From Propionibacteriaceae bacterium (GTDB lineage: Bacteria; Actinomycetota; Actinomycetes; Propionibacteriales; Propionibacteriaceae), in contig JAUNVL010000006.1 in NCBI GenBank assembly GCA_030537675.1, forward strand, positions 1 to 60,447: DNA of 60,447 nucleotides, given 5' to 3'. A program made the translations under genes and the position numbers. The notes below the pieces were generated by a model. The model did not search any database. It saw only the letters and a list, made by a program, of their open reading frames with translations, and was not told the origin of the DNA. Within the stretch, counting starts at the first letter, position 1; each line of letters opens with the position of its first letter. Of the stretch, positions 3,855-19,534 are shown in pieces.

Positions 3855-5084
3855 ATGACGAATCCTATCGGTCGCATTGCGCGATCCCTGGGTCTAGGGC
3901 TGGCCATTCTGTTGGCCCTCGGCGTTCCGGTTGCCGCTGAAGAACCAGACCCCACGGCATCCGCCGCTCCAGGGTTTGCCGCCGGAGAGTTTGAAGACGG
4001 GTCCGTTGAACTCCGGGCACAGGAACTCTTGGTTGCTGATCTCATGGCGCAGTTGGAAGATGCCCGATCACTGCTCAAGCACGAGGGCGCGGAAGATATA
4101 TACTTCGACCCGGGGACGCGCACCGCGACGGTGCTGGCTACCGAAATCAGTCCCGAGCTCAGGTTGGCGGCTGATCAGTTCAACGTCACGAGCACTTCCA
4201 GCTTCCGAGTTGTGTTGGAACTGACCCAGTATACAAGGGACGACTGGGACGCCTTGGCTGATGATCTTCTAAACAACACCTCTGGATGGTCAGACGGTCT
4301 GCCAGGCAAACCGGGTGGTGGCTACATGGTTGACAAAGGATATGTGGCTCTCTCTGTGATGGACTACGACGATCCCGATGTTTGGGTAGAAGCAGCCCGG
4401 CGACGAGCCGGTGATCGGGTCGTGGTCCAAGTGGCTCGGGACCCGGAGGCTGGAACCGCTGAAGAGGCTAGAAACAATGATCCGCTGCCACGCACGGGTG
4501 GGTCTTCACTGACTTTCGGAGCATCAGGTTGCACCGCGGGATTTAACTGGCGCGAATGGGGTAGCGGGCGCTTGTTGGGCTCAACTGCACAGCACTGTTA
4601 TGGCACCAGTTTCTATAACAACGGCAACCTTTGGGGCACCACGGTGGGCTCGGGGAACTTCACCGCTGATGTCCGTGGCCTTTCTGGCAGCAATCAATAT
4701 GGACCCACTGTCTACGTCGGTACCACTACTACCAACGATAAGCGCACAGTCGTCACAGCTAAGGCGTCGTGGGTGGTGGGTGACATCGTCGCATTCGGAG
4801 GTGGGCGCAGTAGCGGTTACAGCACGGCTTATGTGACCAATCCGAACTACGTGCTTCCCAGCGGCATTAGTTGTGGGCAAAACCGCCGCGGAGTGCTGAT
4901 GGATCGGCACAACACTACAGGTGGAGACTCAGGCGGTCCGTGGCTCACTGCCCGTAGTGATCTCAAGATCATCGCACATGGACAACATTATGGATATGAC
5001 ATCTGTCTTTCCGGGAACTCCTTCTTTATCCCAGTAAACACGATCTCGGGAGGACTCGGCGCGTCCATCCTGACTGGTTCGTGA
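3855..5084 (+). CDS. Secreted chymotrypsin-like (S1 fold) serine protease with long propeptide
   Basis: This 409-residue protein has a Sec signal peptide at 1-28 (hydrophobic core LGLGLAILLALGVPVA). A propeptide of about 180 residues follows, and the protease domain starts near 215. The triad can be placed by motif: His247 in STAQHC, Asp272 in TADVRG, and Ser359 in TGGDSGGPW. Cys226/248 and Cys340/384 are plausible disulphide pairs. The layout resembles streptogrisin/alpha-lytic-type enzymes, in which the propeptide chaperones folding and is then cleaved off. A small lipoprotein gene follows after 6 bases. It is flanked on both sides by minus-strand WRTxC-repeat paralogues, which could be substrates, inhibitors or unrelated. 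Confidence 0.88.
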   Translation: MTNPIGRIARSLGLGLAILLALGVPVAAEEPDPTASAAPGFAAGEFEDGSVELRAQELLVADLMAQLEDARSLLKHEGAEDIYFDPGTRTATVLATEISPELRLAADQFNVTSTSSFRVVLELTQYTRDDWDALADDLLNNTSGWSDGLPGKPGGGYMVDKGYVALSVMDYDDPDVWVEAARRRAGDRVVVQVARDPEAGTAEEARNNDPLPRTGGSSLTFGASGCTAGFNWREWGSGRLLGSTAQHCYGTSFYNNGNLWGTTVGSGNFTADVRGLSGSNQYGPTVYVGTTTTNDKRTVVTAKASWVVGDIVAFGGGRSSGYSTAYVTNPNYVLPSGISCGQNRRGVLMDRHNTTGGDSGGPWLTARSDLKIIAHGQHYGYDICLSGNSFFIPVNTISGGLGASILTGS

Positions 5085-6512: not shown

Positions 6513-6539
6513 GCTATGCGGATATCCGCATAGCTCGAC
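6508..6539. repeat. 32-bp perfect palindrome at the border of the inserted recombinase element
   Basis: The palindrome is centred between 6523 and 6524 with no loop; the inner arms read CTATGCGGAT / ATCCGCATAG. It sits exactly where istB stops matching, so it is probably the end of the inserted element. Related TATGCCGAGG motifs follow directly at 6541-6550 and 6558-6567, with an inverted near-copy CCTCGGTATA at 6634-6643. This is the kind of array a tyrosine recombinase could bind. Confidence 0.75.
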
Positions 6540-6705
6540 CTATGCCGAGGCTGCGACTATGCCGAGGGACCCGGCCGGAGGGTTGCTGATGGCGTAGCCA
6601 GACTGGATTTCTCTGTGATGTGGTTGCGGCGATCCTCGGTATAGTTCCGCGCGGGGTAGAGCCTTGGCCGTGGGGCACCGTGCTCCACGAAGGAGGTTCA
6701 GTGCG

Positions 6706-7104
6706 ATGACAGGTCCGCGGCGAAATGCCGGATTGTTGAGCTTGCAGGTCGAGGGATATCGGGCATGGCTGGCAGAGCGGGGGTATACGCCAGGCACGAT
6801 CCGGAACATGCTGAAGGACTTCGGCCAGGTCGGGGTGTGGTTGTTGGAGCAGCCGGTTCAGGTGGCCCAGCTCGATGAGGAGCTGATGGCGGTGTTCGTG
6901 GCTGCTCGACGCTCTGGACGTCGAACGGTTCCCGGGATTCGAGCTATGGCTCCTTCGTTGCAGTATCTCCGAGAGGCTGGCCTTGTTGAAGAAGCACAGC
7001 CTTCCTTGACGCCGCTGGATGAGTTGCTGGATGGGTATCGGACCTGGATGCTCAACGAGCGGGGCTTGGCCCCCACCACGATGCTGCGCTACGTGGAGGA
7101 GGTG
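6706..7104 (+). pseudogene. Tyrosine recombinase/integrase, N-terminal fragment
   Basis: ATG 6706 is preceded by AGGAGG at 6691-6696. About 133 residues remain, with features of SAM-like integrase N-terminal domains: SLQVEGYRAWLAERGYTPGT, then a region resembling core-binding helices, then LLDGYRTWMLNERGLAPTTM. The C-terminal catalytic domain (R...HxxR...Y) is missing; at about 7104 the sequence switches to the 5' end of istB on the opposite strand. The long open frame beyond this point is an antisense artefact. It resembles recombinases of integrase-type insertion elements, but the subfamily cannot be fixed. Confidence 0.65.
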
Positions 7105-7251
7105 CTCGAGTGCTTGGGTCAGGCTCCAGCCCTCGGCCTGGGCTTGGTCGAGGACGCGTGGGAGTGCCTCGGCGGCGTCGGCGAGTTTCAGGGCTGTGAG
7201 GTGGTTGCGGAGCCGCTGATAGACGGTTGCCGGGGTGGGTGTGGTGGTCAT
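7105..7251 (-). mobile_element. istB: IS21-family istB, N-terminal fragment
   Basis: The fragment runs from ATG 7251: MTTTPTPATVYQRLRNHLTA, LKLADAAEALPRVLDQAQ, LTQALEHLL, then the recombinase fragment. The start overlaps the istA stop by 4 bases, as in intact IS21 elements where IstA and IstB are translationally coupled. About 50 of roughly 250 residues remain here; the rest of the surviving protein is at 6229-6512. Confidence 0.8.
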
Positions 7252-8400
7252 GTGAGGGTGTTCCTGTTCTTCGCGGCCTGCTCGTATGCAGCCAGACTCG
7301 TCACGGTGCTGGTGGGTGTCGCGGGGTGGATCAGGAGGGCGGCGGCGCGTAGCGCTGCCTGTCCGGGTGGGATACGTTCCTTGCGGCGATGCGGCCGCCC
7401 TGGAGGTGCTGAGGCCATCGCGATCCGCTCCAGGGCGGTGACGTGGCCGGTGTCGCGGATCGTGACTCCCAGTCCCGGCTCGGCAACCTTGTGGCGGGCA
7501 ACAACCACTCCGCTGGGCGTGGAGATGTTAATGACCTTCACGCCTAGTCGTTGCTCGACGATGACTTTGGCTGCGGCCAGCTCGGGTGGGACGGTGTAGC
7601 GGTTCCCTCGCCAGTCGATCAGTGCCTGCCGGGTGGCGGTGCGTTCTTCGGAGACCGTCACTGGGAACACCGTCGGCGGCAATGGTCGCAGCCGCTCGGC
7701 GGTGAACATGACGGCTGCGGTAGTGGAGCCGTGGGTGTCCTCGCGGCGCCGGTCGTCCTGTCTGGTGGCGAACGCGGTGAGACTGGTCTGGGCTGCCTCG
7801 GCTGTCATGTCGTCGGCCAGGTTGCGCCACCAGCGCTGCGCGGCGGTGTGGTTGTTCTTCTCCACCACCCCTTTCCGGTTCCCGGAGCGGGGACGGCAAG
7901 CAGCGACGGTGACGCCGTGGTGTTTCGCGAAGGCGGCGAACATCGGTGTCAGGTCACTACTGTCGGCCTTGACGACCGTAGACATCCGATCGAAGCGCCA
8001 AACCCTGCTCACCCCGCCCAGCAGCCCAAGCAGGGTGGTGAGTGCTGCCAGCAGGTGGGGCAGGTCCATCGAGGGGGAGATCACGGCCCGCCAGACCCCA
8101 GAATGGGCAAGAGAGCCGACGAGCACGTAGGCCCGCTTCGTGGGGAATCCCCATCCCGGTGGTGCGTCGGGAAGCTCGACCCAGTCGAACTGGGTTTCCT
8201 CCCCAGGAGGATGGGCGATGACAGCGTTGGCCCGTTTCGTGACGTGGGCGCAGGCCACAGGCCGGCCGCAGCCCCCGGAGACGGATCTGGCGGGTCAGGG
8301 TCTGATACGACGACCCGAATCTTAGCCCGGTGAGTTCATCGAAGAGGGTCAGCGCCCATAGATGGGGGTCCTCGACGAGGCGGGTCCTCATTGGCCGCAA
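7248..8400 (-). mobile_element. istA: IS21-family istA transposase, truncated and frameshifted
   Basis: The main frame (7248-8258) carries the rve/DDE core: GEETQFDWVELPDAPPGW with the first Asp, VWRFDRMSTVVKADS with the second Asp region, and GNRKGVVEKNNHTAAQRWW with the Glu. A C-terminal beta-barrel (WRGNRYTVPPELA) follows. A preceding segment, GSSYQTLTRQIRLRGLRPAC at 8400-8258, is in another frame, so there is a frameshift near 8258. The N-terminal HTH is missing; the element ends abruptly next to the ABC permease gene. Confidence 0.85.
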
Positions 8401-8429: not shown

Positions 8430-10805
8430 TCATTCTTGGTTGCGGGGTGGTATTTGTTGCCAAATGAGGGTGGCAAGTAGCGTCACGAGGATACCGGCGG
8501 CGAAGGGAAGCATCCAGATCTCTCCGTATCCACCGGGTTGTGGGAGGGCTGAAATTCGGATGCTGAGCAAGGTGAGTGCGGCGGCGAGCAGGAAGGCTGC
8601 ACAGGTGGGACCGAACAGGCCGAGGAGGAGGTGTCTCCGGTGTTCCACGGAGGTGTGAAGATCGAGGAGGATGCGGCGAGTGCGAGCGTGGGCTGCGCTG
8701 ATTGTTGCGGCGGCAATCAGGAGTATGACTACTGCGACGGAAGCGGCGCCGATGGCGGCGGTGCGGCCGGAGGCTCGCATGAGTGTGTAGTAGACAAACG
8801 GTGTTCCTTCGGCTGTTTGTGCTGCGCCAGCCGCCACTGATACAGCCGACCTGACCTGAGCCTGGGCCTCGGGAGCGAGGGTGGAGAAGTCGAGCATGAT
8901 GAGCATCCCAAACCCCGACGGCATCAGTCCGAGTTCATCGGCTAGTGGTGAGTTGGTGGGGATGACCATGCCGGGCAAGTTGCCACCCAACTCGTCAGCT
9001 CCTTCGGCGGACAGGTCGGGCAAAGTGGTCACGACGCTACCCCCGCTCCCGTCGGGCGTGAAGCGGATCAATCCTGCATAGTTGTTCTCAATAAGCCCTG
9101 GATCAGCCGAGACCGACTGAGCCGTAGCGGACAAGCCGACGATGTTGATCGGCGATGCGGTGTCTTGAGGCCAGCAGTGATCCGGAAGCTCGTCAAGGAT
9201 GTTGGTGGGTTGTTGAGTGTGACATCGGGTCAGCGTTGGCGAGGTCACTCTCACTTGACCGAGGGAACCTTCTTGTGGCAGGGATAGCTTCATCACCTTT
9301 TGTCCACCGAGGCGCGTATAGTCTGCGGCGACTTGGTCGACCACGGTATCAGATATTTCATAGACCGCGTAAGACCCGGCGGGTTGCGGGGCTGCCGACA
9401 TGGACTCTTGGACGTCTACGTTGTGGAGCGTGAAGCCGGCATACCAGCCGCCACCCACGGCGGCCGCAATAGCGAAGCCTGACGCCAGATATTGACCTAC
9501 CCCGATGTGTCGCACCACAGCGGCGGTGGCTGGTCTCAGCCGCCTGCGGACCAACAACCCCAGTCCCATTGGGAGTGCTGCGCTGATCATCGCTGCTCCC
9601 CACGGTGCGAGGAGCACAAACTCTTGACGCGGTGGAATGATCGCGCTTCGGCTAGCCGCTGCCACCCCAATCAGCGCTGCACCTACTGCGGTGATAGCCA
9701 GGGCCCAGCGATCCCACCTGACAAAGGAGAATCCCGCAACACCGACCCGGGCGCTGAGAGCGGCGGAGCATCGGACACCTTCACCCATGAACCGGCATGC
9801 AACCGCCGCACCCACGGTGCCCAGTAGCGTGAGCCACGGTGACGCCTTGACCCAGATCCACTGCTGACCAATCAGTGCCGACACCGGCTCGCGTAACACC
9901 CACAACCCAGCAAACGCCGTCGCGGCACCCAGCAGCGACCCCACCGCCAAACATATCCCAGCCGACAGACCAACCACCACCCAGCTGATTCGTGGTGATA
10001 TTCCTGCGTATACCAATGCCTCCCGGAGGGACCGGCGTGCCGTGACAGTCACCACCAACACCACGCCGATCAGCAGGAGCCCAACGCCGCCCAACGAGGA
10101 ACTCAATGCTGTTAACCCAGTCACCTGAGGCGGAAGATTGGCAGCCATGTCCTCGACTAGCGCAGCTGTCGACCGGTAGGTGATGGTCCTTTCAACCATG
10201 AATGATTCCAGCTCGGGAAAATTGATGAAACCTGTGTCGCTGACCCACGCAGTGGCCGTCATAGTGAGGGTGCCGGGATCCGTCACGAGAGCACCGACCC
10301 TGTCCGCGGTTGCCGGATCAACCAAAATCCCAGAAACTGTCAGCACCTCACCGGGATCACCCAGCATCACCGTGTCGCCGATCCCAACCTCTAGAGCATC
10401 AGCCAATGCGATAAAGAGTGCCGTTTGCCCCTCGGCGGGTCTTTCTCCATCGGTCAACACCCCCCAGGGGACACCAGGATCAGCCATTACATGAACCGGC
10501 GCCTCGACCCGATGCGTGGGGGTGAACACGGCTGCCCGAAACACGCCGAAGGTGTCCACGTCCTTGAGCCCCGACAGCGCCGCAACAGCATCTTTAGTGG
10601 CGGCCTGCGCAACATAGCTTCGGCCAGCGTGATCGGCCATCACCGAAGACTCCAAAGCCAACTCCGCAGAACTATGAATGGTCTGCAGACCAAATATCAC
10701 CGCCGCGACTGCGGCAGCCACCACGACCAGCACCACGGATCGGGCACGATCCCGCAGCGTCAACCTGCAAGCCAAACCAATCGGAGAGTTCAAGTGCTGG
10801 GACAC
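8430..10805 (-). CDS. FtsX/MacB-like ABC transporter permease
   Basis: This 791-residue membrane protein has duplicated FtsX architecture. It shows TM1 at about 23-42, an exported domain at about 45-230, and a TM block at about 235-465. A second exported domain at about 470-690 contains two cysteines (LTRCHTQQ, PDHCWPQD), and three TMs form the end (about 690-785). The start overlaps the 3' end of the ATPase gene by 16 bases. MacB-type complexes act mechanically on periplasmic or cell-surface substrates rather than as ordinary importers. Together with the small secreted protein encoded first in the operon, a role in export of, or protection against, that protein is plausible. The gene abuts an IS21 remnant but appears intact. 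Confidence 0.85.
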   Translation of the reverse strand: MSQHLNSPIGLACRLTLRDRARSVVLVVVAAAVAAVIFGLQTIHSSAELALESSVMADHAGRSYVAQAATKDAVAALSGLKDVDTFGVFRAAVFTPTHRVEAPVHVMADPGVPWGVLTDGERPAEGQTALFIALADALEVGIGDTVMLGDPGEVLTVSGILVDPATADRVGALVTDPGTLTMTATAWVSDTGFINFPELESFMVERTITYRSTAALVEDMAANLPPQVTGLTALSSSLGGVGLLLIGVVLVVTVTARRSLREALVYAGISPRISWVVVGLSAGICLAVGSLLGAATAFAGLWVLREPVSALIGQQWIWVKASPWLTLLGTVGAAVACRFMGEGVRCSAALSARVGVAGFSFVRWDRWALAITAVGAALIGVAAASRSAIIPPRQEFVLLAPWGAAMISAALPMGLGLLVRRRLRPATAAVVRHIGVGQYLASGFAIAAAVGGGWYAGFTLHNVDVQESMSAAPQPAGSYAVYEISDTVVDQVAADYTRLGGQKVMKLSLPQEGSLGQVRVTSPTLTRCHTQQPTNILDELPDHCWPQDTASPINIVGLSATAQSVSADPGLIENNYAGLIRFTPDGSGGSVVTTLPDLSAEGADELGGNLPGMVIPTNSPLADELGLMPSGFGMLIMLDFSTLAPEAQAQVRSAVSVAAGAAQTAEGTPFVYYTLMRASGRTAAIGAASVAVVILLIAAATISAAHARTRRILLDLHTSVEHRRHLLLGLFGPTCAAFLLAAALTLLSIRISALPQPGGYGEIWMLPFAAGILVTLLATLIWQQIPPRNQE

Positions 10806-11464
10806 AAAGCTCCTTCACCCATCCGAAAACGACGCACAGCTTTCGCAGCGACACCAAGGTCATGGGTGGCGACCACCACCGCGACACCATGCTCACGCGC
10901 CAGCTGCGTCAACAGCTCAGCCACATGCCCCGTGTTCTCCGCATCCAAGGCACCAGTTGGCTCATCGGCCAACAACACGGTGCATCCAGCAAGCAAGGTG
11001 CGCGCGATAGCGACCCTCTGCTGTTCGCCCCCCGACAACGTCTCCGGCATCCGATCAGGGCTAATCCCATCCAAACCCACCTGCGCCAGAGCCTGGAGGA
11101 CATCATCGTCGCTGGGACTGCCAGGTCTGCGAGTCTCCCACGCTAGTCTCAGATTCTCCCCAACCGTCAAGAAGGGAACCAGGCGGTAATCCTGGTGGAT
11201 CAAACCGATACGCGCATCACCCGAAGACCGCCACGAGGGGCGCCCCACAGGCTGACCGTCGATGAGCACATCGCCTGCATCTGCGGGCAACACTCCCGCG
11301 ATCACCCGCAACAACGTGGTCTTGCCGCTGCCGCTGGGACCGGTCACTGCCACCGGGTAATCCTCCGCTGAGAAATCAAAATTGATACCGTTCAGCGGCG
11401 TCGTAGCCGAAAAACGAACAGTGAGGTCGCGGCCCAGCAGCCGCGGCGAGAAGACGTCAGACAC
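10790..11464 (-). CDS. ABC transporter ATP-binding protein (LolD/MacB-like)
   Basis: From GTG 11464 this gives 224 residues; a GTG-TCT-GA overlap with the preceding stop suggests coupled translation. An alternative ATG at 11494 with GGGGAG upstream gives 234 residues. All nucleotide-binding motifs are present: Walker A TGPSGSGKTTLL, Q-loop IHQDYRLVPF, signature LSGGEQQRVAIART, Walker B VLLADEPTGALD, and H-loop VATHDLG. It powers the FtsX-like permease encoded immediately downstream. The gene trio (secreted small protein, ATPase, permease) is laid out as in lactococcin 972-type bacteriocin systems, although the small protein does not look like lactococcin 972 itself. Confidence 0.9.
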   Translation of the reverse strand: MSDVFSPRLLGRDLTVRFSATTPLNGINFDFSAEDYPVAVTGPSGSGKTTLLRVIAGVLPADAGDVLIDGQPVGRPSWRSSGDARIGLIHQDYRLVPFLTVGENLRLAWETRRPGSPSDDDVLQALAQVGLDGISPDRMPETLSGGEQQRVAIARTLLAGCTVLLADEPTGALDAENTGHVAELLTQLAREHGVAVVVATHDLGVAAKAVRRFRMGEGALCPST

Positions 11465-11804
11465 CCTTAATTTCTGTCCGTGCCGAAGAACCATAAATGG
11501 AGTCTCCCCACCCTGAGTAGTAATACTTGTTGAGGGACGTGAACCACGAGGTGTACAGGGCGGTAGGAACCAAATTGCGGTCCAAAACTCCGCGCGCCTT
11601 CGAGTCCCCCTGAAGGCTACTGCAAGATGCCCGGACCCTGTACAAGTCGGGAAGATTATTTCTCACTTGATGCTGCCGAATGGCCGAGCAGTTGCCCCCA
11701 ATGGCACTAGCGGTGGGGGCTTGGGCAACCAGAATCGTCCCTCCCACCAGCGCCGCGCTCAGTGCTAAAGCCTTGGCTTTTGATATAAACGGATGAGAGA
11801 ACAT
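11457..11804 (-). CDS. Small secreted two-cysteine protein, bacteriocin-like candidate
   Basis: This 115-residue protein starts at ATG 11804 with AAGGAG at 11811-11816. A clear Sec signal peptide (KAKALALSAALVGGTILVAQ, cleavage near ASA-IGG at about 34) leaves a mature protein of about 80 residues. The mature part has two cysteines (GGNCSAIR, RASCSSLQ) that could form one disulphide, and an aromatic, Gly/Ser/Tyr-rich C-terminal half (TSWFTSLNKYYYSGWGDSIY). It is the first gene of an operon with an overlapping ABC ATPase and FtsX-like permease. No known family is recognised. Candidates are a secreted antimicrobial or signalling protein with a dedicated ABC system. Confidence 0.75.
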   Translation of the reverse strand: MFSHPFISKAKALALSAALVGGTILVAQAPTASAIGGNCSAIRQHQVRNNLPDLYRVRASCSSLQGDSKARGVLDRNLVPTALYTSWFTSLNKYYYSGWGDSIYGSSARTEIKGV

Positions 11805-12108: not shown

Positions 12109-12258
12109 TCACGTGTTTGACACCTCAGCGGGTTGCTGAGTCTGGGTTTTATCGTAGTAGAGGGCTTCGAGTTCGGCGGGCGGCATGTCTCCGCAGTACT
12201 CGTAGAGCCGGCGGTAGTTGTACCAGTCAGCCCACTCGGCAGTTGCGTACTCGACGTC
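12109..12258 (-). mobile_element. IS3-family transposase 3' end (minus strand)
   Basis: The minus strand reads DDVEYATAEWADWYNYRRLY, EYCGDMPPAELEALYYDKTQ and a short tail to a stop at 12109. This is the typical C terminus of an IS3-family OrfB integrase. Similarity ends near 12258, where a different IS3 fragment begins on the other strand, so the two 3' ends diverge from one junction. Confidence 0.8.
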
Positions 12259-12443
12259 GTCGGATGCAGATCGAGCTGCTGAACCGCCGGAAATGGAAGA
12301 CTCGGGTGGAATTGGCCAACGCAATTTTTGAGTACATCGAGATCTTCCACAACCGTCAACGACGCCACTCCGCCCTGGGCTACCGTTCCCCGATTGAGTA
12401 CGAGAGACTCAACGAACAAGAACAGCTCCCCGCTGCCAGTTAG
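12255..12443 (+). mobile_element. IS3-family transposase 3' end (plus strand)
   Basis: The plus strand reads MQIELLNRRKWKTRVELANA, IFEYIEIFHNRQRRHSALGY, RSPIEYERL and ends at a stop at 12443. This is the C terminus of an IS3-family OrfB of a different subgroup from the minus-strand fragment at 12109-12258. The two join back to back, consistent with successive insertions followed by deletion. Confidence 0.8.
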
Positions 12444-12512
12444 CCACCACGACTGGAACCCAACTGGTGGGGCAGGTCACACTGTCACCTGATCGTGCAG
12501 CAGACCCACCAT

Positions 12513-13010
12513 TCACTCAGGATCGGTCCCTAACAGCTTTTTTATGGTCGCTTTCGCTGCACTCAAAGACATATGCGGGGTCACGGATTCAAGCAAATGC
12601 AATTGAAACGTATGAACTTCAAGAACCCGAGGTGGCGCGTTTGTTTGCACTTCGTCGACCTCGAGAGCTACGTCTACTGCCCGGCAGGCTGCGCGCCAAG
12701 CACCATCCTTATCACCCTCTACTGCAGCGATTGCTTCCAACACGACTCCGTCGATCGCATCCACGTCCAGACTATCCCTGATGGTCGGTGATATGACGCA
12801 AGGTTCACCAGACTTGTCGGTTTCAAGGCAATGCCAACACTCCGTCAAGATCTCGAGGAACCTTTTATCTGCATGGGGCGAACTCCGTATGGCGTGCTCA
12901 GCGAATCCAATGGCGGCGGCCGCTCTTAGAGTACTAGGCAGGCAATTCAAGCTAGTCGCAATCTGCCTAGCAGCGCCACGTCGAAATCTTTCATCTGGTG
13001 GATGTCGCAC
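12513..13010 (-). CDS. Candidate immunity protein of the RHS toxin
   Basis: The chosen start is GTG 13010, 5 bases after the RHS stop (13018-13016), giving 165 residues; a start at 13103 would overlap the RHS tail by 88 bases. The protein looks mainly helical and has an acidic middle (DSLDVDAIDGVVLEAIAAVE, then DVALEVDEVQ). It has three cysteines and no signal peptide or membrane segment, so it should be cytoplasmic. No family is recognised. A small acidic cytoplasmic protein directly after a large toxin with a basic C-terminal tip is the usual arrangement for polymorphic-toxin immunity genes. Confidence 0.6.
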   Translation of the reverse strand: MRHPPDERFRRGAARQIATSLNCLPSTLRAAAAIGFAEHAIRSSPHADKRFLEILTECWHCLETDKSGEPCVISPTIRDSLDVDAIDGVVLEAIAAVEGDKDGAWRAACRAVDVALEVDEVQTNAPPRVLEVHTFQLHLLESVTPHMSLSAAKATIKKLLGTDPE

Positions 13011-13015
13011 TTGAT

Positions 13016-16000
13016 TCACCGACGCCTTGGAGTCTTCTTGGGCCCCTCCCAAGGACGGTGCCATTTGATACCGGGGCGACGGTGATGGTGCAGAACCTGC
13101 CAAGCTTTTTGACCAGGAAATTTGTGTGAATGGAGACCAAATACTCGTCGACCTCTATATGTGAGGTCTGTTCCTCTGGCGCTTCCTTTAGAAAATCGCA
13201 CGCCAAATTTGAATCGCGAGCTAAGCTTCCACCCGATTTTACTCGCCGCACTTCCCCACAGTAGGCCAGACGCCCCGCCAATTGCCGTCGCCCTCAACGC
13301 TCCCCGCCACTTCCACCGACTGGAACCAGCATGGGCGGCTGCGTATGTACCCAGCCCCGCCGCCGCTCCCACTGCAACTCCACATACGATCGAGGCACCG
13401 CAAGCGAGTGCTCCAACAACGGCCCCTGCAATGACGACACCCTTGAACACTTTTCTCCAGCGGCTCTCTTGACCGGTGGTGTCTTGTTTGTTGATGGGGT
13501 CGTTGGGGTAGGTGTAGGTGGTTTCGTTGCCGCCGTGGATGGGGTCGGGGCTGGTGAATAGTCCGGTGGTGGGGTTGTAGAGGCGGGCTCCCATGAGGGT
13601 GATGCCGATGCCTGTGGTGGTGCGTTGGTGTGCGCCGAGCCAGCCGTAGCCGTTACCTGCGGCGCCGCTGATGCCGGTGGGGGCAAGTGTGGTGGGGTGG
13701 CCGTATTCGGTGTATCTGGTCCAGGAATCCAGCCCGGTGGCTGTGTCGTTGGGGTTGGTGAGGGTGATGGTGGCGGCGATGTCGCCGCGGGGGGTGGTGA
13801 GTGCAAGTTCTCCTCGTGTGCCGAAGGTGTCGGTGATGATGGAGAGGCTGAGGTCGTCGGAGACGAGATCGCCGTAGACGGTGGTGGCTGTTTGCCCGTT
13901 TTTGGTGTGGGTGATCCAGCCGGGGTTGTCGGAATCGTCAACGTAGTGGTTGACGGTTTTCTCGGTGAGGGTTCCGGGGTTGGTGAGGGTGCCGCCGGTG
14001 TAGCTGGCCTGGGTGGTGCGTCGGCCGGAGGTGTCGAGGTCGTAGGTGGTGGAGTTGTTGCCTTGGCGGATCCGGCGTGCGGCATCACCGTCGAAGTACT
14101 CGAGGTAGATGTCGCCGTCGGTGGGGTTGGGGGCGTCGGCGGCGGGGATAGTGGTTTGTCGGCCGAGGGGGTCGTAGGTGTAGTCGCCTTGGCCTCCTGC
14201 CCCGGTGATGGGACGGTCGGCGATGTCGTAGCTGCGCGTCACGGTGGCGGTCACGACCGGATTAGTACATTGCCCACCCTCGGCGGTGGCGGCGGTGTGG
14301 GTGGTGCGGTTGCCGCGTTCGTCGAAGCTGTAGGTGCGTTTGCTGCAGACAATCTCGCTGTCGGGGTTGGGGGTGGAGAGGTCGGTTACGGTTGTGAGTC
14401 GGCCTGCTTTGTCGTAGCTGTAGTTCAGGTCTGCGTATTGGGCGTTGGCGCCGGTGAGTGCGGGGCCGTCGGGGTTGTATTCTTTGGTGATTTGTCCGGC
14501 GGCGTTGGCGCTGATGCTCCATGCCACCCATGGCACATCCTCTGTGACCTGTCCGGTGTCGGGGTTGGTGATCTGGCCGGAGTAGGACTGAGTGATTAGT
14601 TCCCCGGTGAGGTCATGGACGGAGTTGCGGGTGATTTCGCCCGGTAGTTTTTCCAGGGTGAGTTCGCCGTGGGCGTCGTAGGCGGCTGTGGCGGTGGTGG
14701 TGTAGCCGTTGACGGTGTTGGTGACTTCTGTGAGCAGTCCACGGGTTTCGGTGTTGCCTTGCGCGTCGGTCCCGTCCCACACCATCGTGGTTTCACCGTG
14801 GGGGGTGGTGATCTTGGAGATCTCACCGAGCTGGTTGTAGGTGGTGGTTGTCGTCTCGGCTGTGCCGCCGGTGGTGGTGGTGTAGGTGGTTTGGCGTCCC
14901 CAGGTGTCGTAGGTCATGGCGGTGGAGCCTCTGGCTGATGAGGTCTCTTTCACTTGGCCGGTCGTGTCGAAGTAGGTGGTTGTCACCGTTGGCTCAGAAA
15001 TGGAGTCAGGCAACCCGATCACCGTTGTGGACACCGTCTTGGGTCGACGCTTGTCATCGAGTGTGGTGGTGGTGGTACGCGTCGCCGAACCGGAAGTTTC
15101 GATCTGGGTAAGGGCTTGGCCGTCCCACTGGTAGTCGCTTGTGAGGGTGACCGGGACCGGACCTGTCGGGGGCTGGGTGGCTGGGGGTTGGGCGGCGGGT
15201 CCGACCTTGCAGAGGTAGCCCGCCCATGGTGCTTTGTTGCCGCATTGGGCGTCGCGTGGGTTGGGGCCGGCGGACCAGTACACCGTTTTGCGGGTCGCGG
15301 CGTCGGTGCCGGTGGAGCCGGGTTTGCGTTCCTCGACTGTGCGGCCCTTTTTGTCGTAGCGCACCTGCGAGATGAGATCAGGGATCTTGGTGCCGTCTTG
15401 GGCCGTTCCCATGTCGAGTGTGGTGGAGGTGGGCAAACCGAGGTCCCAACCAGTAATGGTGCCGTCCACGACGGGGGCGGTGTAGCCGCTCTTGGTGGTG
15501 GTCAACGTTTCAACAACCGTGCCATCGAGGCGCTTCGCGGTCACCGTAGCCGTGGTCGCCAGACCGTAAGGCCGCTGCGTTTGGGGGTTGATGCCGTTGT
15601 TGGGTGCACCTTGGTCGTAGTCGGTGTGGAGGTGGCGCCGCAGCATCTGTTCCTCGGTAGCTCCCGCAGGCAGGATCATTGCCGCCGGGGAGTACACGTC
15701 CGTCACTCTGGTCCCGGACGGCACCAAAACAGTCTTGCCGTCAGCTGTTGTGATGTCTGTGTTGTAGACGGTATTGGTCGCGGCGGCTGCGATGTCGGTG
15801 ATTTCTCCTGTCCGGATGGCGGCGGTGGCGCGGGTGTCCCAGGTGGAGATGATGTTGTCGGAGTCGTCGTAGATGTTGGCGCTCAGTTGCCATTGGCCGG
15901 CGCCGTAGCGGGCTTCGTGGATGGTGTAGCCGGCCTGGTCTGTGAGCCACACATCAGCCTTGCGCCATGCTGTGTCCCCCGCGGAAACAGGTGCCGTGGG

Positions 16001-19000
16001 GGTGTCGGGGCCGAACACCGCGAACGCCTTCGACGCTGTGCGGGGCAGGTTGTAGTTGGCGAATTGGGCCTCGAGGGCACCCAGGCCGGAGATGTCGGCG
16101 GGGGCTATGTCGTAGAGGAATGCTGCCAACTGTGATGTTCCGCCCCCGTCTGTGGCGGGTACCGGCCGGGTAACTCTTGCCAACTTTGACGGGGTGGTGC
16201 TGGTGTAGGTGTAGGTGACGGGGTCCTGACCGGGTTCGGTGATCGTGGCCAGACGGGGCTGGATGGTTGAGCCGGTCCAGGTGTAGGTGGTGGAGAGTCC
16301 CGTGATCGTGTCGGTGGCTTTGGTCATCCGGCCGAAGGTGTCGTAGATGTAGGTGGCCAACGTCTTGGAAGCTTCCCCGTTGACTTCCGCGGTGATGGAT
16401 TTCACTCGCTTGTTGGTGTCGTATTGCAGCTCCAGGGCCCGGCATCCGGGTGCAGAACCCGTGCTGGGACATGACGTGACGCCATCCGGCAGGCCAGCAG
16501 TGATCCTGGTGACTCTCCCTGTTGTGTCGTGGGTATAGGTGGTCTTGCCTTCCACCACGGGATCGATGACCTCCACCACGCGGAAGTCGGCTTCTGTTGC
16601 CGCCGTCACCATGGGTGCTGAGTACCTGGTGGTGATGGCGTCCTCGTCTGTGACAAGAATACTGATGGTCGTGTCGCCGGTCTTGATCTCTGCCACCGAC
16701 AGGCGTAGTCCCGAGGCCTCAGCATCGGCACCCACCGGCTTGTACACGGCCTTGGAAGCGAAAGCAGAGGCGCGGCGTTTCCCATCAAGGGAGAACGGCA
16801 GGGCAGTGCCGTCGGCATCGACGAGTACGAGGGTGCCGTCGTAGAGGGTGTTGTCGATCAACTCCATCCCGGAGGTGCCGGAGCCGTCGCCATCGAAGGC
16901 GGCAACCCAGCCCGGCCCAAACACCGCGTTCGCGACATTGGGATCCCCGGCGAAGGTGGAGTGGACCCGGGAGATCGAGAGGCCACCATCGGGGGTGGAC
17001 AGTTGGGCGTCGGTGTCACTGATTTGCAGTTCGCCGGTCCACAAAGCAACTTGCCCGCCGCCGGCCTCCGTGACGGGGAACCCGGCACCAAAGGCGTGGG
17101 GTACCCGCACCACATCCACCGGGTCGGTGTTGGTTTTACCGGAGGTGCCGTAGTCCAACACCACGCGCAGTTGGATGACGGTGGAGACCCGTTTGGCGAC
17201 CTTCACCCCGGACCCGTCAGCCAAGCCTTCCAGGGCGGCTGTGTCGAGTCGGCCACTGAAGGTCGTTCCTGATGTGGTGGCGGTGGTGCTCCATGCATTG
17301 TTCGGGGCGCTTGTCCAGGCGTTGTCGTTGGATCCCTTGATGCGCCACTGAATCGACCCTTTGACAGTCGGTGCTGCACCCTTGGGCTGCCCGGTAGCCT
17401 TCACCTCTATCTCGCCGTGGGTGACCATCCCCGCACCGGGGGAGGTCAGCTTCGCCTTTCCATAGCCAAATTGGTACGTCTGGGTGGCGGACTGCTTCCC
17501 CGTTGGAGAGACCGTTACCGCGCGCAGCGCGTGGACACCATCGCTGCCGCCCATTTGCACGCCGTGGCTGTTCGGGCTGGTGGGTGACGGCTGGGTTTTG
17601 GTCACTTCCTGCCATGCAGCACCATTGATCGACCACCTCACCTTGACCGGGGCCGAGGTTGCCTGTGCCGGGTTGACCGGCATCGTGATCACACACGTCT
17701 CTTTGGGTTTGGCCGTGTCGCCCCAGGACCCATTGGCCGTCGGGCAGGTGATCGTCGGGGTCACAGGGGTTGCGAAGGCGACCCTCGCTTCTTGGGCGGG
17801 TCCCCACCCAGACCAGCCACCGACCTCATCACCCAAGGTCGCGCGGATCCACACCGTGGTGTTGTCCTTCAACACCCCCGCGACTGCGGTACACGTGGCG
17901 GTGCCACCGGAGGCCACCAACCCTGACTGACACAAAGTGACAGGGGCGGCCGTCGATGTCGAGGAGGTGAACGCGGCGAAGTTGGCCTTGGAGGTGTTGG
18001 CGTCGGCGTCCCTGACCACCACACTCAACTTCGGGGCGCCAGCCACGAACGGCTTCACACCGGACTGGGTCATGGCATTGGTCAACCCACCCACCGTCGG
18101 GACAGCAGGGACATTGGGTGCCCGGTTGTAGCGCACCGAAATCACCGGCTTGTTCTGCCCCTTCGAGGAATGGAACCTCTTCCACGACACCACATCGGTT
18201 TCGTTGTCGGCACGCAGCATCATCCCGACCTGTGATGTAGAGGCCGTCGACATCGCCTTGGCATACGAGGTGGTGTCCAACTGGACCCGGGCGCCGGGAC
18301 ACGACGCCGAGTACCCGGCCGCCACATTCAACGTCGCATGCTTGACCCCCACGCTGGGTTGGTTTGCCCAGTTCGTGGATGTGGAGGCCAACCCTGCCGC
18401 GTACACCGAGAACGGGCGGGCCGTGCAGTTATACGACCACGACTCATACAACGACAACGTCGAGGAAATCACTTGACGGCCCTTGAACAAGGCCGCGTCG
18501 AAGTTCATGAAGGTGCGGGCGATCTGCCCCTGCCCGTTGTTGCCCAGCTTCAACTCCGCGGAGCCAGACTGATCCGAGGTGATGCCCTGCTGCACGAACG
18601 CATCAAAAGCCGGGATACGGTCATCCAGCGTATAGGTCGGGTCAATCACTACCGGGAACACCCGCTCCGGGTCGCTCAACCAGGCACCATCAGCCACCAC
18701 ATCCACTGGGGTTCCCGACGCACCAACCGGCTCGGCGGCAACCTCCATGACCACAGGCTCCACCACACCCTGCTCACCCGGGGTTTCGGTGTTCGTGTCC
18801 CACATCACCGGGTCCGCGAAGGAGCCCACCACATCACCTGCGGCGTCTTGGACCTGCACCACACCGCCACTATCGGCGGTAACGTCACCACCAGCGCTGA
18901 GCAGGGTCGGTAGCCGCAACTGCTCCTCCACGCCGTACTCCTCAAGGAGGGTGGTGGCGGCCTCGGGGGTCTTCACGATCCACAACACCTCGAACCCCGC

Positions 19001-19522
19001 TGAGCGGACCTCCACCGACAAATCCACCCCCGCCAGCACCTCCGGGTACACCGCGGTAGGTCCGTCCAGCACCGGTGTCGGCAACACCACATCGGGCAAA
19101 GCAAACTTCACCTCACCCGCAGCACCGGCATCGAAAACAACCGCCGGCTCCCCCGCCGTGCCGAGCTGCACATCCACCGGCATCGACACCGGCCCCACAC
19201 CCTCAGAGGTGGCCTGCAGAGTCGTGTCAATATCGCGCCACTGATCGGAGTCTTCCTTGAGGAAGCGCACCGCCGCAGCGGCTTGCTCCTCCTCCACAGA
19301 CCCGTCCGGGAATACCCACACCCGCCCGGTTTCAGACTTCTCCGACAACACCTCCACCCGCTGCCCTGTGGAGCGGGCCGTCACCGTCGCCGACACCCAA
19401 TCCGGCCGAACCAACTCCCCCACCACCGGATCAGGCGGATCCGCCCAAGCCGGACCTGAAACCCCAGCCCCAGCAATCAAAGCAACCGAGGCAACCAACC
19501 ACACCAAACGACGCACCCACAT
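13016..19522 (-). CDS. Secreted RHS/YD-repeat polymorphic toxin
   Basis: ATG 19522 gives about 2,168 residues; a GTG at 19534 would add 4. In order: a Sec signal peptide (VWLVASVALIAGAGVSGPAWA); a DNRLRE-like domain (GSAELKLGNNGQGQIARTFM, NWANQPSVG); beta-sandwich linker domains; and a long YD-repeat shell (TYSFDERGNRTTHTA, YTYDPLGRQTT). The RHS core hallmark follows (LMGARLYNPTTGLFTSPDPI, TYPNDPINKQD). The last 151 residues (13016-13471) are variable: a Gly/Ala-rich hydrophobic stretch (VVIAGAVVGALACGASIVCG), a second hydrophobic patch, then a very basic tip (GLHSHKFPGQKAW, HHHRRPGIKWHRPWEG). The His/Arg-rich tip suggests a nuclease, but the family was not identified. A candidate immunity gene follows. 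Confidence 0.88.
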   Translation of the reverse strand: MWVRRLVWLVASVALIAGAGVSGPAWADPPDPVVGELVRPDWVSATVTARSTGQRVEVLSEKSETGRVWVFPDGSVEEEQAAAAVRFLKEDSDQWRDIDTTLQATSEGVGPVSMPVDVQLGTAGEPAVVFDAGAAGEVKFALPDVVLPTPVLDGPTAVYPEVLAGVDLSVEVRSAGFEVLWIVKTPEAATTLLEEYGVEEQLRLPTLLSAGGDVTADSGGVVQVQDAAGDVVGSFADPVMWDTNTETPGEQGVVEPVVMEVAAEPVGASGTPVDVVADGAWLSDPERVFPVVIDPTYTLDDRIPAFDAFVQQGITSDQSGSAELKLGNNGQGQIARTFMNFDAALFKGRQVISSTLSLYESWSYNCTARPFSVYAAGLASTSTNWANQPSVGVKHATLNVAAGYSASCPGARVQLDTTSYAKAMSTASTSQVGMMLRADNETDVVSWKRFHSSKGQNKPVISVRYNRAPNVPAVPTVGGLTNAMTQSGVKPFVAGAPKLSVVVRDADANTSKANFAAFTSSTSTAAPVTLCQSGLVASGGTATCTAVAGVLKDNTTVWIRATLGDEVGGWSGWGPAQEARVAFATPVTPTITCPTANGSWGDTAKPKETCVITMPVNPAQATSAPVKVRWSINGAAWQEVTKTQPSPTSPNSHGVQMGGSDGVHALRAVTVSPTGKQSATQTYQFGYGKAKLTSPGAGMVTHGEIEVKATGQPKGAAPTVKGSIQWRIKGSNDNAWTSAPNNAWSTTATTSGTTFSGRLDTAALEGLADGSGVKVAKRVSTVIQLRVVLDYGTSGKTNTDPVDVVRVPHAFGAGFPVTEAGGGQVALWTGELQISDTDAQLSTPDGGLSISRVHSTFAGDPNVANAVFGPGWVAAFDGDGSGTSGMELIDNTLYDGTLVLVDADGTALPFSLDGKRRASAFASKAVYKPVGADAEASGLRLSVAEIKTGDTTISILVTDEDAITTRYSAPMVTAATEADFRVVEVIDPVVEGKTTYTHDTTGRVTRITAGLPDGVTSCPSTGSAPGCRALELQYDTNKRVKSITAEVNGEASKTLATYIYDTFGRMTKATDTITGLSTTYTWTGSTIQPRLATITEPGQDPVTYTYTSTTPSKLARVTRPVPATDGGGTSQLAAFLYDIAPADISGLGALEAQFANYNLPRTASKAFAVFGPDTPTAPVSAGDTAWRKADVWLTDQAGYTIHEARYGAGQWQLSANIYDDSDNIISTWDTRATAAIRTGEITDIAAAATNTVYNTDITTADGKTVLVPSGTRVTDVYSPAAMILPAGATEEQMLRRHLHTDYDQGAPNNGINPQTQRPYGLATTATVTAKRLDGTVVETLTTTKSGYTAPVVDGTITGWDLGLPTSTTLDMGTAQDGTKIPDLISQVRYDKKGRTVEERKPGSTGTDAATRKTVYWSAGPNPRDAQCGNKAPWAGYLCKVGPAAQPPATQPPTGPVPVTLTSDYQWDGQALTQIETSGSATRTTTTTLDDKRRPKTVSTTVIGLPDSISEPTVTTTYFDTTGQVKETSSARGSTAMTYDTWGRQTTYTTTTGGTAETTTTTYNQLGEISKITTPHGETTMVWDGTDAQGNTETRGLLTEVTNTVNGYTTTATAAYDAHGELTLEKLPGEITRNSVHDLTGELITQSYSGQITNPDTGQVTEDVPWVAWSISANAAGQITKEYNPDGPALTGANAQYADLNYSYDKAGRLTTVTDLSTPNPDSEIVCSKRTYSFDERGNRTTHTAATAEGGQCTNPVVTATVTRSYDIADRPITGAGGQGDYTYDPLGRQTTIPAADAPNPTDGDIYLEYFDGDAARRIRQGNNSTTYDLDTSGRRTTQASYTGGTLTNPGTLTEKTVNHYVDDSDNPGWITHTKNGQTATTVYGDLVSDDLSLSIITDTFGTRGELALTTPRGDIAATITLTNPNDTATGLDSWTRYTEYGHPTTLAPTGISGAAGNGYGWLGAHQRTTTGIGITLMGARLYNPTTGLFTSPDPIHGGNETTYTYPNDPINKQDTTGQESRWRKVFKGVVIAGAVVGALACGASIVCGVAVGAAAGLGTYAAAHAGSSRWKWRGALRATAIGGASGLLWGSAASKIGWKLSSRFKFGVRFSKGSARGTDLTYRGRRVFGLHSHKFPGQKAWQVLHHHRRPGIKWHRPWEGPKKTPRRR

Positions 19523-19534
19523 TATGAACAGCAC

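What the first reader, a model, noticed from the sequence alone, without database searches (positions are those of the whole stretch)
12513..13471. RHS toxin tip with a dedicated candidate immunity gene
The last 151 residues of the RHS protein follow the core hallmark PNDPINKQD and are unlike the shell: glycine-zipper hydrophobic segments, then a strongly basic His/Arg tip (HHHRRPGIKWHRPWEG). Five bases after its stop a small acidic cytoplasmic protein begins. Polymorphic-toxin loci have exactly this layout. The tip and immunity families were not recognised, so this may be an undescribed pair. The hydrophobic segments before the tip could take part in membrane entry.
Basis: partly seen in the sequence, partly recalled or inferred. 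Interest (0 to 1): 0.75.

Follow-up and report, generated by a model that had tools for sequence, protein, structure and literature searches.

The report
Swappable bacterial toxin tip, odd partner
A giant, probably secreted bacterial protein ends in an exchangeable tip that is probably a nucleic-acid-cutting toxin with relatives in other bacteria, but the small gene beside it, its presumed antidote, is unlike the genes beside the relatives that were examined.

Summary
In detail: an intact 2172-residue RHS protein (13016-19534, minus) ends in a basic 151-residue tail, directly followed by a small acidic ORF (P0001).

The toxin-tip reading is well supported. Shell relatives in the same bacterial family keep the RHS core, but 22 of 23 have another, short or truncated tail. 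GC3 drops from 78% in the shell to 45-51% in the tail and 50% in P0001. The last 76 residues match eight other fetched loci (Actinomycetota, one Methylomonas plasmid). H-x-H-R and HRPW are invariant in the eight tips aligned, window included. Pfam, NCBIfam, PADLOC and PHROGs do not name the tip.

The 'dedicated immunity' reading is weaker. In 8 of 8 fetched relatives another gene stands beside the tip. Seven of these belong to one or two acidic families; L020 is a doubtful member. P0001 is unrelated to them and has no convincing relative in what I searched. I read P0001 as a replacement immunity gene; that it neutralises the tip is inferred.

The hydrophobic segment is not specific to this tip. 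Verdict: new member of a known kind with an unusual partner.

The parts
13472..19534 (-). RHS shell: hydrophobic N-terminus resembling a signal peptide, DNRLRE domain, RHS repeats, RHS core
   Evidence: NCBIfam NF033679 E 1.7e-20 and TIGR03696 40.5 bits against cut-off 32.5; Pfam PF05593 E 5.8e-8. Signal peptide read by eye only.
13247..13471 (-). Hydrophobic glycine-rich pre-toxin segment of the tail
   Evidence: Maximum 19-residue Kyte-Doolittle mean 2.41; 2.1-2.2 in L009, L016, L048; below zero in L017, L018, L019; 1.26 in L020 (starts of these tails set by hand)
13016..13246 (-). Conserved basic toxin domain, 76 residues plus stop; H-x-H-R and HRPW invariant in eight aligned tips
   Evidence: Alignment A12; a profile of the seven other tips finds the window tip at E 1.9e-16 in a nine-source test set; GC3 45% against 78% in the shell
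12513..13019 (-). Candidate immunity ORF (P0001): 168 residues from the GTG overlapping the RHS stop, 165 from the GTG at 13010
   Evidence: no convincing relative; unrelated to the usual partners
12117..12507 (+). Mobile-element debris (IS3 type recalled); a probable element end about six bases past the stop codon of P0001
   Evidence: rve_2 E 2.4e-10 in ORF 12117-12443; matches to three actinobacterial plasmid records, 70-82 bases, 79-90% identity, all beginning at 12506 or 12507. That this is an element end is inferred; the two records opened carry no annotation.

Best explanation
This is a WapA-like RHS polymorphic toxin of a high-GC Gram-positive bacterium. The RHS shell is exported and carries its C-terminal tail to a neighbouring cell, where the last 76 residues, a small basic His/Arg-rich domain, act as a nuclease, most likely a metal-independent RNase using the conserved histidines and arginine. 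Tail and next ORF arrived together as a foreign cassette swapped in after the RHS core. The ORF, probably cotranslated through a GTGA overlap, makes a soluble acidic protein that binds the basic tip and protects the producer. It is not the partner this tip family normally has, so it is a replacement immunity gene. Shown: gene order, swap point, composition break, tip family, mismatch of partner. Inferred: export, delivery, joint arrival, nuclease activity, start codon, neutralisation.
For: Swap: the six same-genus loci with a full core (L023 to L028) share 62-67% of the last 200 shell residues but 16-26% of the tail in a forced global alignment; of 23 loci only L032 (the L009 locus) keeps the tail, 47%. 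Tip family: a profile of window, L009, L016 and L048 finds L049, L017, L019 and L018 at E 1e-15 to 1.1e-5 and L020 at 0.0033 in a nine-source test set. Composition: GC3 shell 78%, tail 51%, its last 76 residues 45%, P0001 50%. Position, overlap and acidity of P0001. Open-frame test 7 of 20000. Precedent for one toxin family with unrelated immunity proteins: PMC13392607 (outline with abstract, sections 5 and 8).
Against: P0001 has no convincing relative, so neither its family nor its function has independent support. In 8 of 8 fetched relatives another gene stands in its place. The window tip differs from the seven others at one otherwise invariant residue (tyrosine, here histidine, between the two histidines of H-x-H-R), so an altered activity is not excluded. 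No structure could be predicted. RNase activity is argued from conserved residues only; a metal-dependent His nuclease is not excluded. Delivery is by analogy with WapA.
Confidence: 0.6

Rival explanations
1. P0001 is not the immunity protein of this tip. It is a bystander or a leftover of an earlier tip, and the true partner was lost; the toxin is tolerated because it is not expressed, is altered, or the cell resists it.
For: 8 of 8 fetched relatives have a different neighbour. Mobile-element debris begins about six bases after P0001. No usual partner was found in the window or the held genome. One otherwise invariant tip residue is changed.
Against: P0001 overlaps or abuts the toxin gene, shares the tip's low GC3 and is open well beyond chance. 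The tip keeps 8 of the 9 residues invariant in the seven others. In the relatives the partner is the next gene, the place P0001 holds. The genome is 93% complete in 213 contigs, so absence of a partner is not proven.
Confidence: 0.3
2. The tip is a metal-dependent His nuclease of HNH/EndoVII or beta-beta-alpha-metal type acting on DNA.
For: Three invariant histidines; the residue after HRPW is acidic in 6 of 8 tips. Such domains are common tips (PMC3482391, passages), and Tde5 depends on three histidines (PMC13392607 section 5).
Against: No acidic residue is invariant in the eight tips. No Pfam or NCBIfam nuclease family is listed for the tips scanned, up to E 5, though HMMER's filters drop many weak matches.
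Confidence: 0.3
3. The tail acts on membranes: the hydrophobic segment is the toxic part (pore former) and the basic end only helps binding.
For: Strongly hydrophobic glycine-rich segment, KD 2.41. An RHS pore-forming toxin, Tse5, is described (PMC10684867, title and start of abstract in the listing).
Against: Four of eight tails of the tip family lack such a segment at the cut-off used but keep the basic end; 14 of 20 unrelated tails of related shells have one, including L025, whose tail is a GIY-YIG nuclease. P0001 and the eight partners have no strongly hydrophobic stretch.
Confidence: 0.08

Closest known systems
WapA/WapI of Bacillus subtilis (RHS toxin of a Gram-positive bacterium)
   Same: RHS protein with a C-terminal toxin; WapA is a delivered tRNase toxin (PMC5566331, start of abstract in the listing). 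Downstream immunity gene, DNRLRE domain and signal peptide of WapA are recalled.
   Different: The tip here matches no named family, and its neighbour is not the usual partner of the tip family.
MafB toxins of Neisseria
   Same: Polymorphic toxins with a downstream immunity gene (PMC4287609, passages). MafB2-CT is an RNase with an RNase A fold needing three histidines (PMC9970974, passages). Two N. gonorrhoeae records match the Methylomonas form of the tip at 64.5% over 62 residues.
   Different: That match lies where the table lists no gene and was not fetched, so it is not shown to be a MafB tip; the same records do not match the Methylomonas partner gene at E 1e-3. No solved structure matches the tip by sequence (best E 0.15).
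Tde5 with Tdi5a, Tdi5b and alternative immunity proteins
   Same: One toxin family served by unrelated immunity proteins in different genomes (PMC13392607 section 8).
   Different: Different toxin, delivered by a T6SS, shown by experiment.
Polymorphic toxin domains catalogued by Zhang et al. 2012
   Same: Same architecture; several predicted two-histidine RNases such as Ntox18, 19, 22, 26, 30 (PMC3482391, passages).
   Different: No such family is listed for the tip in Pfam or NCBIfam up to E 5; the paper's own alignments were not compared.

Membership tests
RHS polymorphic toxin (WapA-like) | RHS repeats and RHS-associated core directly before the tail | tested here: met
   PF05593 E 5.8e-8; TIGR03696 40.5 bits, cut-off 32.5, ending at residue 2022
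RHS polymorphic toxin (WapA-like) | Conserved shell, exchangeable tail | tested here: met
   22 of 23 core-bearing loci outside the window have another, short or truncated tail (forced identity 13-28%); L032 alone shares it, 47%
RHS polymorphic toxin (WapA-like) | Sec signal for export | not tested
   Hydrophobic N-terminus seen in the sequence; no predictor was run
RHS polymorphic toxin (WapA-like) | Toxic tip neutralised by the product of the next gene | not testable with these tools
   Needs expression tests
Unnamed H-x-H-R...HRPW tip family | Residues invariant in the seven other aligned tips | tested here: met
   8 of 9 kept, H-x-H-R and HRPW among them; the tyrosine of HYHR is histidine in the window
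Unnamed H-x-H-R...HRPW tip family | Usual acidic partner gene directly downstream | tested here: not met
   P0001 stands there; the profile of 8 partners finds nothing in the window better than E 1.3 and nothing in the held genome
Named toxin domains in Pfam, NCBIfam, PADLOC, PHROGs | Match above the curated cut-off (Pfam, NCBIfam) or within the E limit | tested here: not met
   Only sub-threshold hits: DUF2976 E 0.02 and TIGR03745 E 0.034 on the hydrophobic part, Gly-zipper E 3.9, MelC1 E 0.19
RNase A or BECR-type metal-independent RNase | Fold and catalytic histidine pair | not testable with these tools

The most novel reading that the evidence does not exclude
The tip belongs to a widespread, unnamed toxin family shared by Actinomycetota and Pseudomonadota that normally travels with its own partner gene, and in this genome the partner has been replaced outright by an unrelated protein of no known family: a natural case of immunity replacement under an intact toxin.
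Probability: 0.45. Interest if true: 0.6.

Novelty: new member of a known kind. Interest (0 to 1): 0.42.

Why it matters
Polymorphic toxins serve competition between bacteria, and many tips have no named family. Comparison here yields a definable tip family with a conserved motif, a usual partner gene, and one natural exception. If P0001 does neutralise the tip, the locus shows how a toxin can change its antidote, a question that the recent Tde5 work raises (PMC13392607; outline with abstract, sections 5 and 8 seen).

Tried and rejected
Rejected: that the hydrophobic segment belongs to this tip in particular. Rejected: five marginal tip hits (L004-L008, E 7e-4 to 9e-3), which lack the motif. 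The three marginal P0001 hits (L011-L013, E 0.001 to 0.004; E 8e-4, 9e-4 and 0.028 in the small set) lie in frames of 330 to 1025 codons, one with a stop inside; I treat them as chance. P0001's PHROG hit (E 0.028) and its NCBIfam hits (E 0.095 and 0.15) are treated the same way. Plasmid hit H6 was dropped: annotated neighbours there are metabolic genes and a hydrolase. PDB hits (best E 0.15) are treated as chance.

Led nowhere: genome-contig scans, viral-contig scans, phage tblastn, text searches: HYHRR found 0 papers; HRPWE listed 6 and 'Rhs' with HRPW 14, and none of their titles concerns such a toxin (listings only).

Weak points: the direct link from the window tip to L017 was E 0.8 and from L017 to L020 E 3e-3; the family rests on the profile test, in which L020 is reached at E 0.0033 from the window's subgroup and 1.7e-5 from all others, while the reverse test (profile of L017, L018, L019) finds L016 at 1e-10 and the window at 1.1e-4 but L009, L048 and L049 only at E 0.02 to 1.8. 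The eight partners fall into two subgroups (L017, L018, L019 against the rest) joined weakly (hhalign probability 15%, E 0.0017). Leaving one out, 7 of 8 partners are recovered at E 2e-5 or better and L020 is not (E 0.21); several recoveries rest on close siblings in the profile. The genome scans are samples: tip in 198, 394, 35, 396 and 152 genomes; P0001, a single sequence and so a weak query, in 198 and 391. L019 and L047 are taken as one locus from matching coordinates and counted once.

Full report
What is there. On the minus strand an intact RHS gene (13016-19534, 2172 residues) ends in a 151-residue tail after the core sequence PNDPINKQD-TTG. NCBIfam finds a DNRLRE domain and the RHS-associated core, ending at residue 2022, and Pfam finds RHS repeats. 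The tail has a hydrophobic glycine-rich segment and then 76 very basic residues. The next ORF (P0001) is acidic. Its likelier start is a GTG at 13019 that overlaps the RHS stop codon, with AAGG five bases upstream (inferred choice), giving 168 residues. The frame is open over all 168 codons in 7 of 20000 dinucleotide-preserving shuffles, any of three frames in 16.

Swap point. The last 200 shell residues were searched in 197 genomes of the same bacterial family: 20 matched at E 1e-20 or better, the window's own included, giving 23 loci outside the window. The six same-genus loci with a full core (L023 to L028) share 62-67% of those residues with the window but 16-26% of the tail in a forced alignment. 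Of all 23, only L032, the L009 locus of another genus, keeps the tail (47%, shell 48%); the rest have other, short or truncated tails. One swapped tail is a GIY-YIG nuclease (L025, Pfam E 1e-9). This is the known polymorphic-toxin pattern. GC at third codon positions is 78% in the shell, 51% in the tail, 45% in its last 76 residues and 50% in P0001, which fits tail and ORF being foreign and arriving together.

The tip family. Relatives came from several steps: L009 (E 3.4e-19), L016 (E 2.3e-18), the Streptomyces plasmid L017 (only E 0.8 from the window), L018 and L019 from L017 (E 6e-17 and 3e-13), the Methylomonas plasmid L020 from L017 (E 3e-3), and Streptomycetaceae genomes L048 and L049 (E 1.2e-12 and 1e-9 with a seven-tip profile). 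A direct test supports one family: a profile of window, L009, L016 and L048 alone finds L049 at 1e-15, L017 at 1.1e-9, L019 at 1.4e-6, L018 at 1.1e-5 and L020 at 0.0033 in a test set of nine sources; the reverse test with L017, L018 and L019 is weaker (window 1.1e-4; L009, L048 and L049 0.02 to 1.8). L049 is a short orphan tip of 127 codons and was not aligned. In the eight aligned tips one glycine, H-x-H-R and HRPW are invariant. The seven others also share the tyrosine of HYHR, which is histidine in the window. Two Neisseria gonorrhoeae records match the Methylomonas tip at 64.5% over 62 residues but not its partner gene at E 1e-3; they were not fetched. Pfam, NCBIfam, PADLOC and PHROGs do not name the tip (L018 and L020 tips), no solved structure matches by sequence, and text searches for HYHRR and HRPWE listed no paper on it by title. 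It looks uncommon: convincing matches in 2 of 198, 2 of 394, 1 of 35, 2 of 396 and 3 of 152 genomes, the seed genome included each time.

The partner. In 8 of 8 fetched relatives (L009, L016, L017, L018, L019, L020, L048, L049) the gene beside the tip is a small acidic protein (pI 4.2 to 5.4) without a strongly hydrophobic stretch. They form one or two families: 7 of 8 are recovered by a profile of the others, L020 is not (E 0.21), and the two subgroups are joined only weakly. In the plasmid collection the L018 partner is found in 3 records, each beside a tip, and the L020 partner in 1. P0001 belongs to neither subgroup (hhalign probability 0.1% against both). No usual partner is found in the window (best E 1.3) or in the held genome, which is 93% complete. 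The tool warns that an empty answer without a positive control shows little; the leave-one-out test is my partial control.

P0001 itself. No convincing relative was found in 198 family genomes or 391 order genomes, in the genome and viral collections by pattern, in plasmids or phages, or among 43 fetched loci (its best hits, E 8e-4 and 9e-4, are loci picked for weak similarity and lie in unrelated frames). Mobile-element debris starts about six bases past its stop codon, judged from three plasmid matches that begin within one base of each other and an integrase-core fragment. The stop codon lies outside the matched stretch, so there is no sign that the element truncated the ORF, but the region further downstream is rearranged.

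How it most likely works. The shell is exported and delivers the tail (by analogy with WapA; PMC5566331 listing and recall). The basic His/Arg domain is a nuclease. I prefer a metal-independent RNase because the invariant polar residues are histidines and arginines with no invariant acid, as MafB2-CT is an RNase A-fold toxin needing three histidines (PMC9970974 passages). A metal-dependent DNase such as Tde5 is a live rival (PMC13392607 section 5), and the residue after HRPW is acidic in 6 of 8 tips. P0001 most likely binds and masks the tip. That one toxin family can be served by unrelated immunity proteins is reported for Tde5 (PMC13392607 section 8). The hydrophobic segment looks like a general pre-toxin feature: 14 of 20 unrelated tails of related shells have one, and four of eight tails of this tip family do not at the same cut-off.

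Verdict. The toxin tip belongs to a family without a name in the libraries searched; the dedicated pair is not shown, and the comparison speaks against a fixed pair. The best reading is a replacement immunity gene, at about 0.6.

Noticed in passing
window 8430-11804 (-): A small protein with a signal-peptide-like start (11457-11804), an ABC ATPase (10790-11494; best NCBIfam hits FtsE 148 bits and the bacteriocin-export type TIGR03608 144.6 bits, both below cut-off) and a 791-residue protein (8430-10805) without NCBIfam or Pfam match at E 0.1. The layout recalls lactococcin-972-type bacteriocin loci (recalled).
   Followed up: partly
window 6514-8258 (-): Transposase with Mu-type C-terminal and rve domains (7248-8258) next to another frame at 6514-7251; IS21 type is recalled, not tested.
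   Followed up: partly
window 3855-5084 (+): Secreted serine-protease-like protein with GDSGGPW seen by eye; no Pfam match at E 0.1.
   Followed up: no
L009 3878-10481 (-): The RHS gene of a close relative lies in two overlapping frames (1672 and 630 residues), either a real frameshift or a sequencing error; left as is.
   Followed up: no
L049: Orphan tip of the same family in a 127-codon frame with a short partner-like gene directly downstream, like the displaced cassettes known from Rhs loci (recalled).
   Followed up: partly
L025, L027: Two shell relatives carry similar tails of GIY-YIG pattern (Pfam-tested for L025 only), followed by proteins that look like leucine-rich repeats (by eye).
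   Followed up: partly
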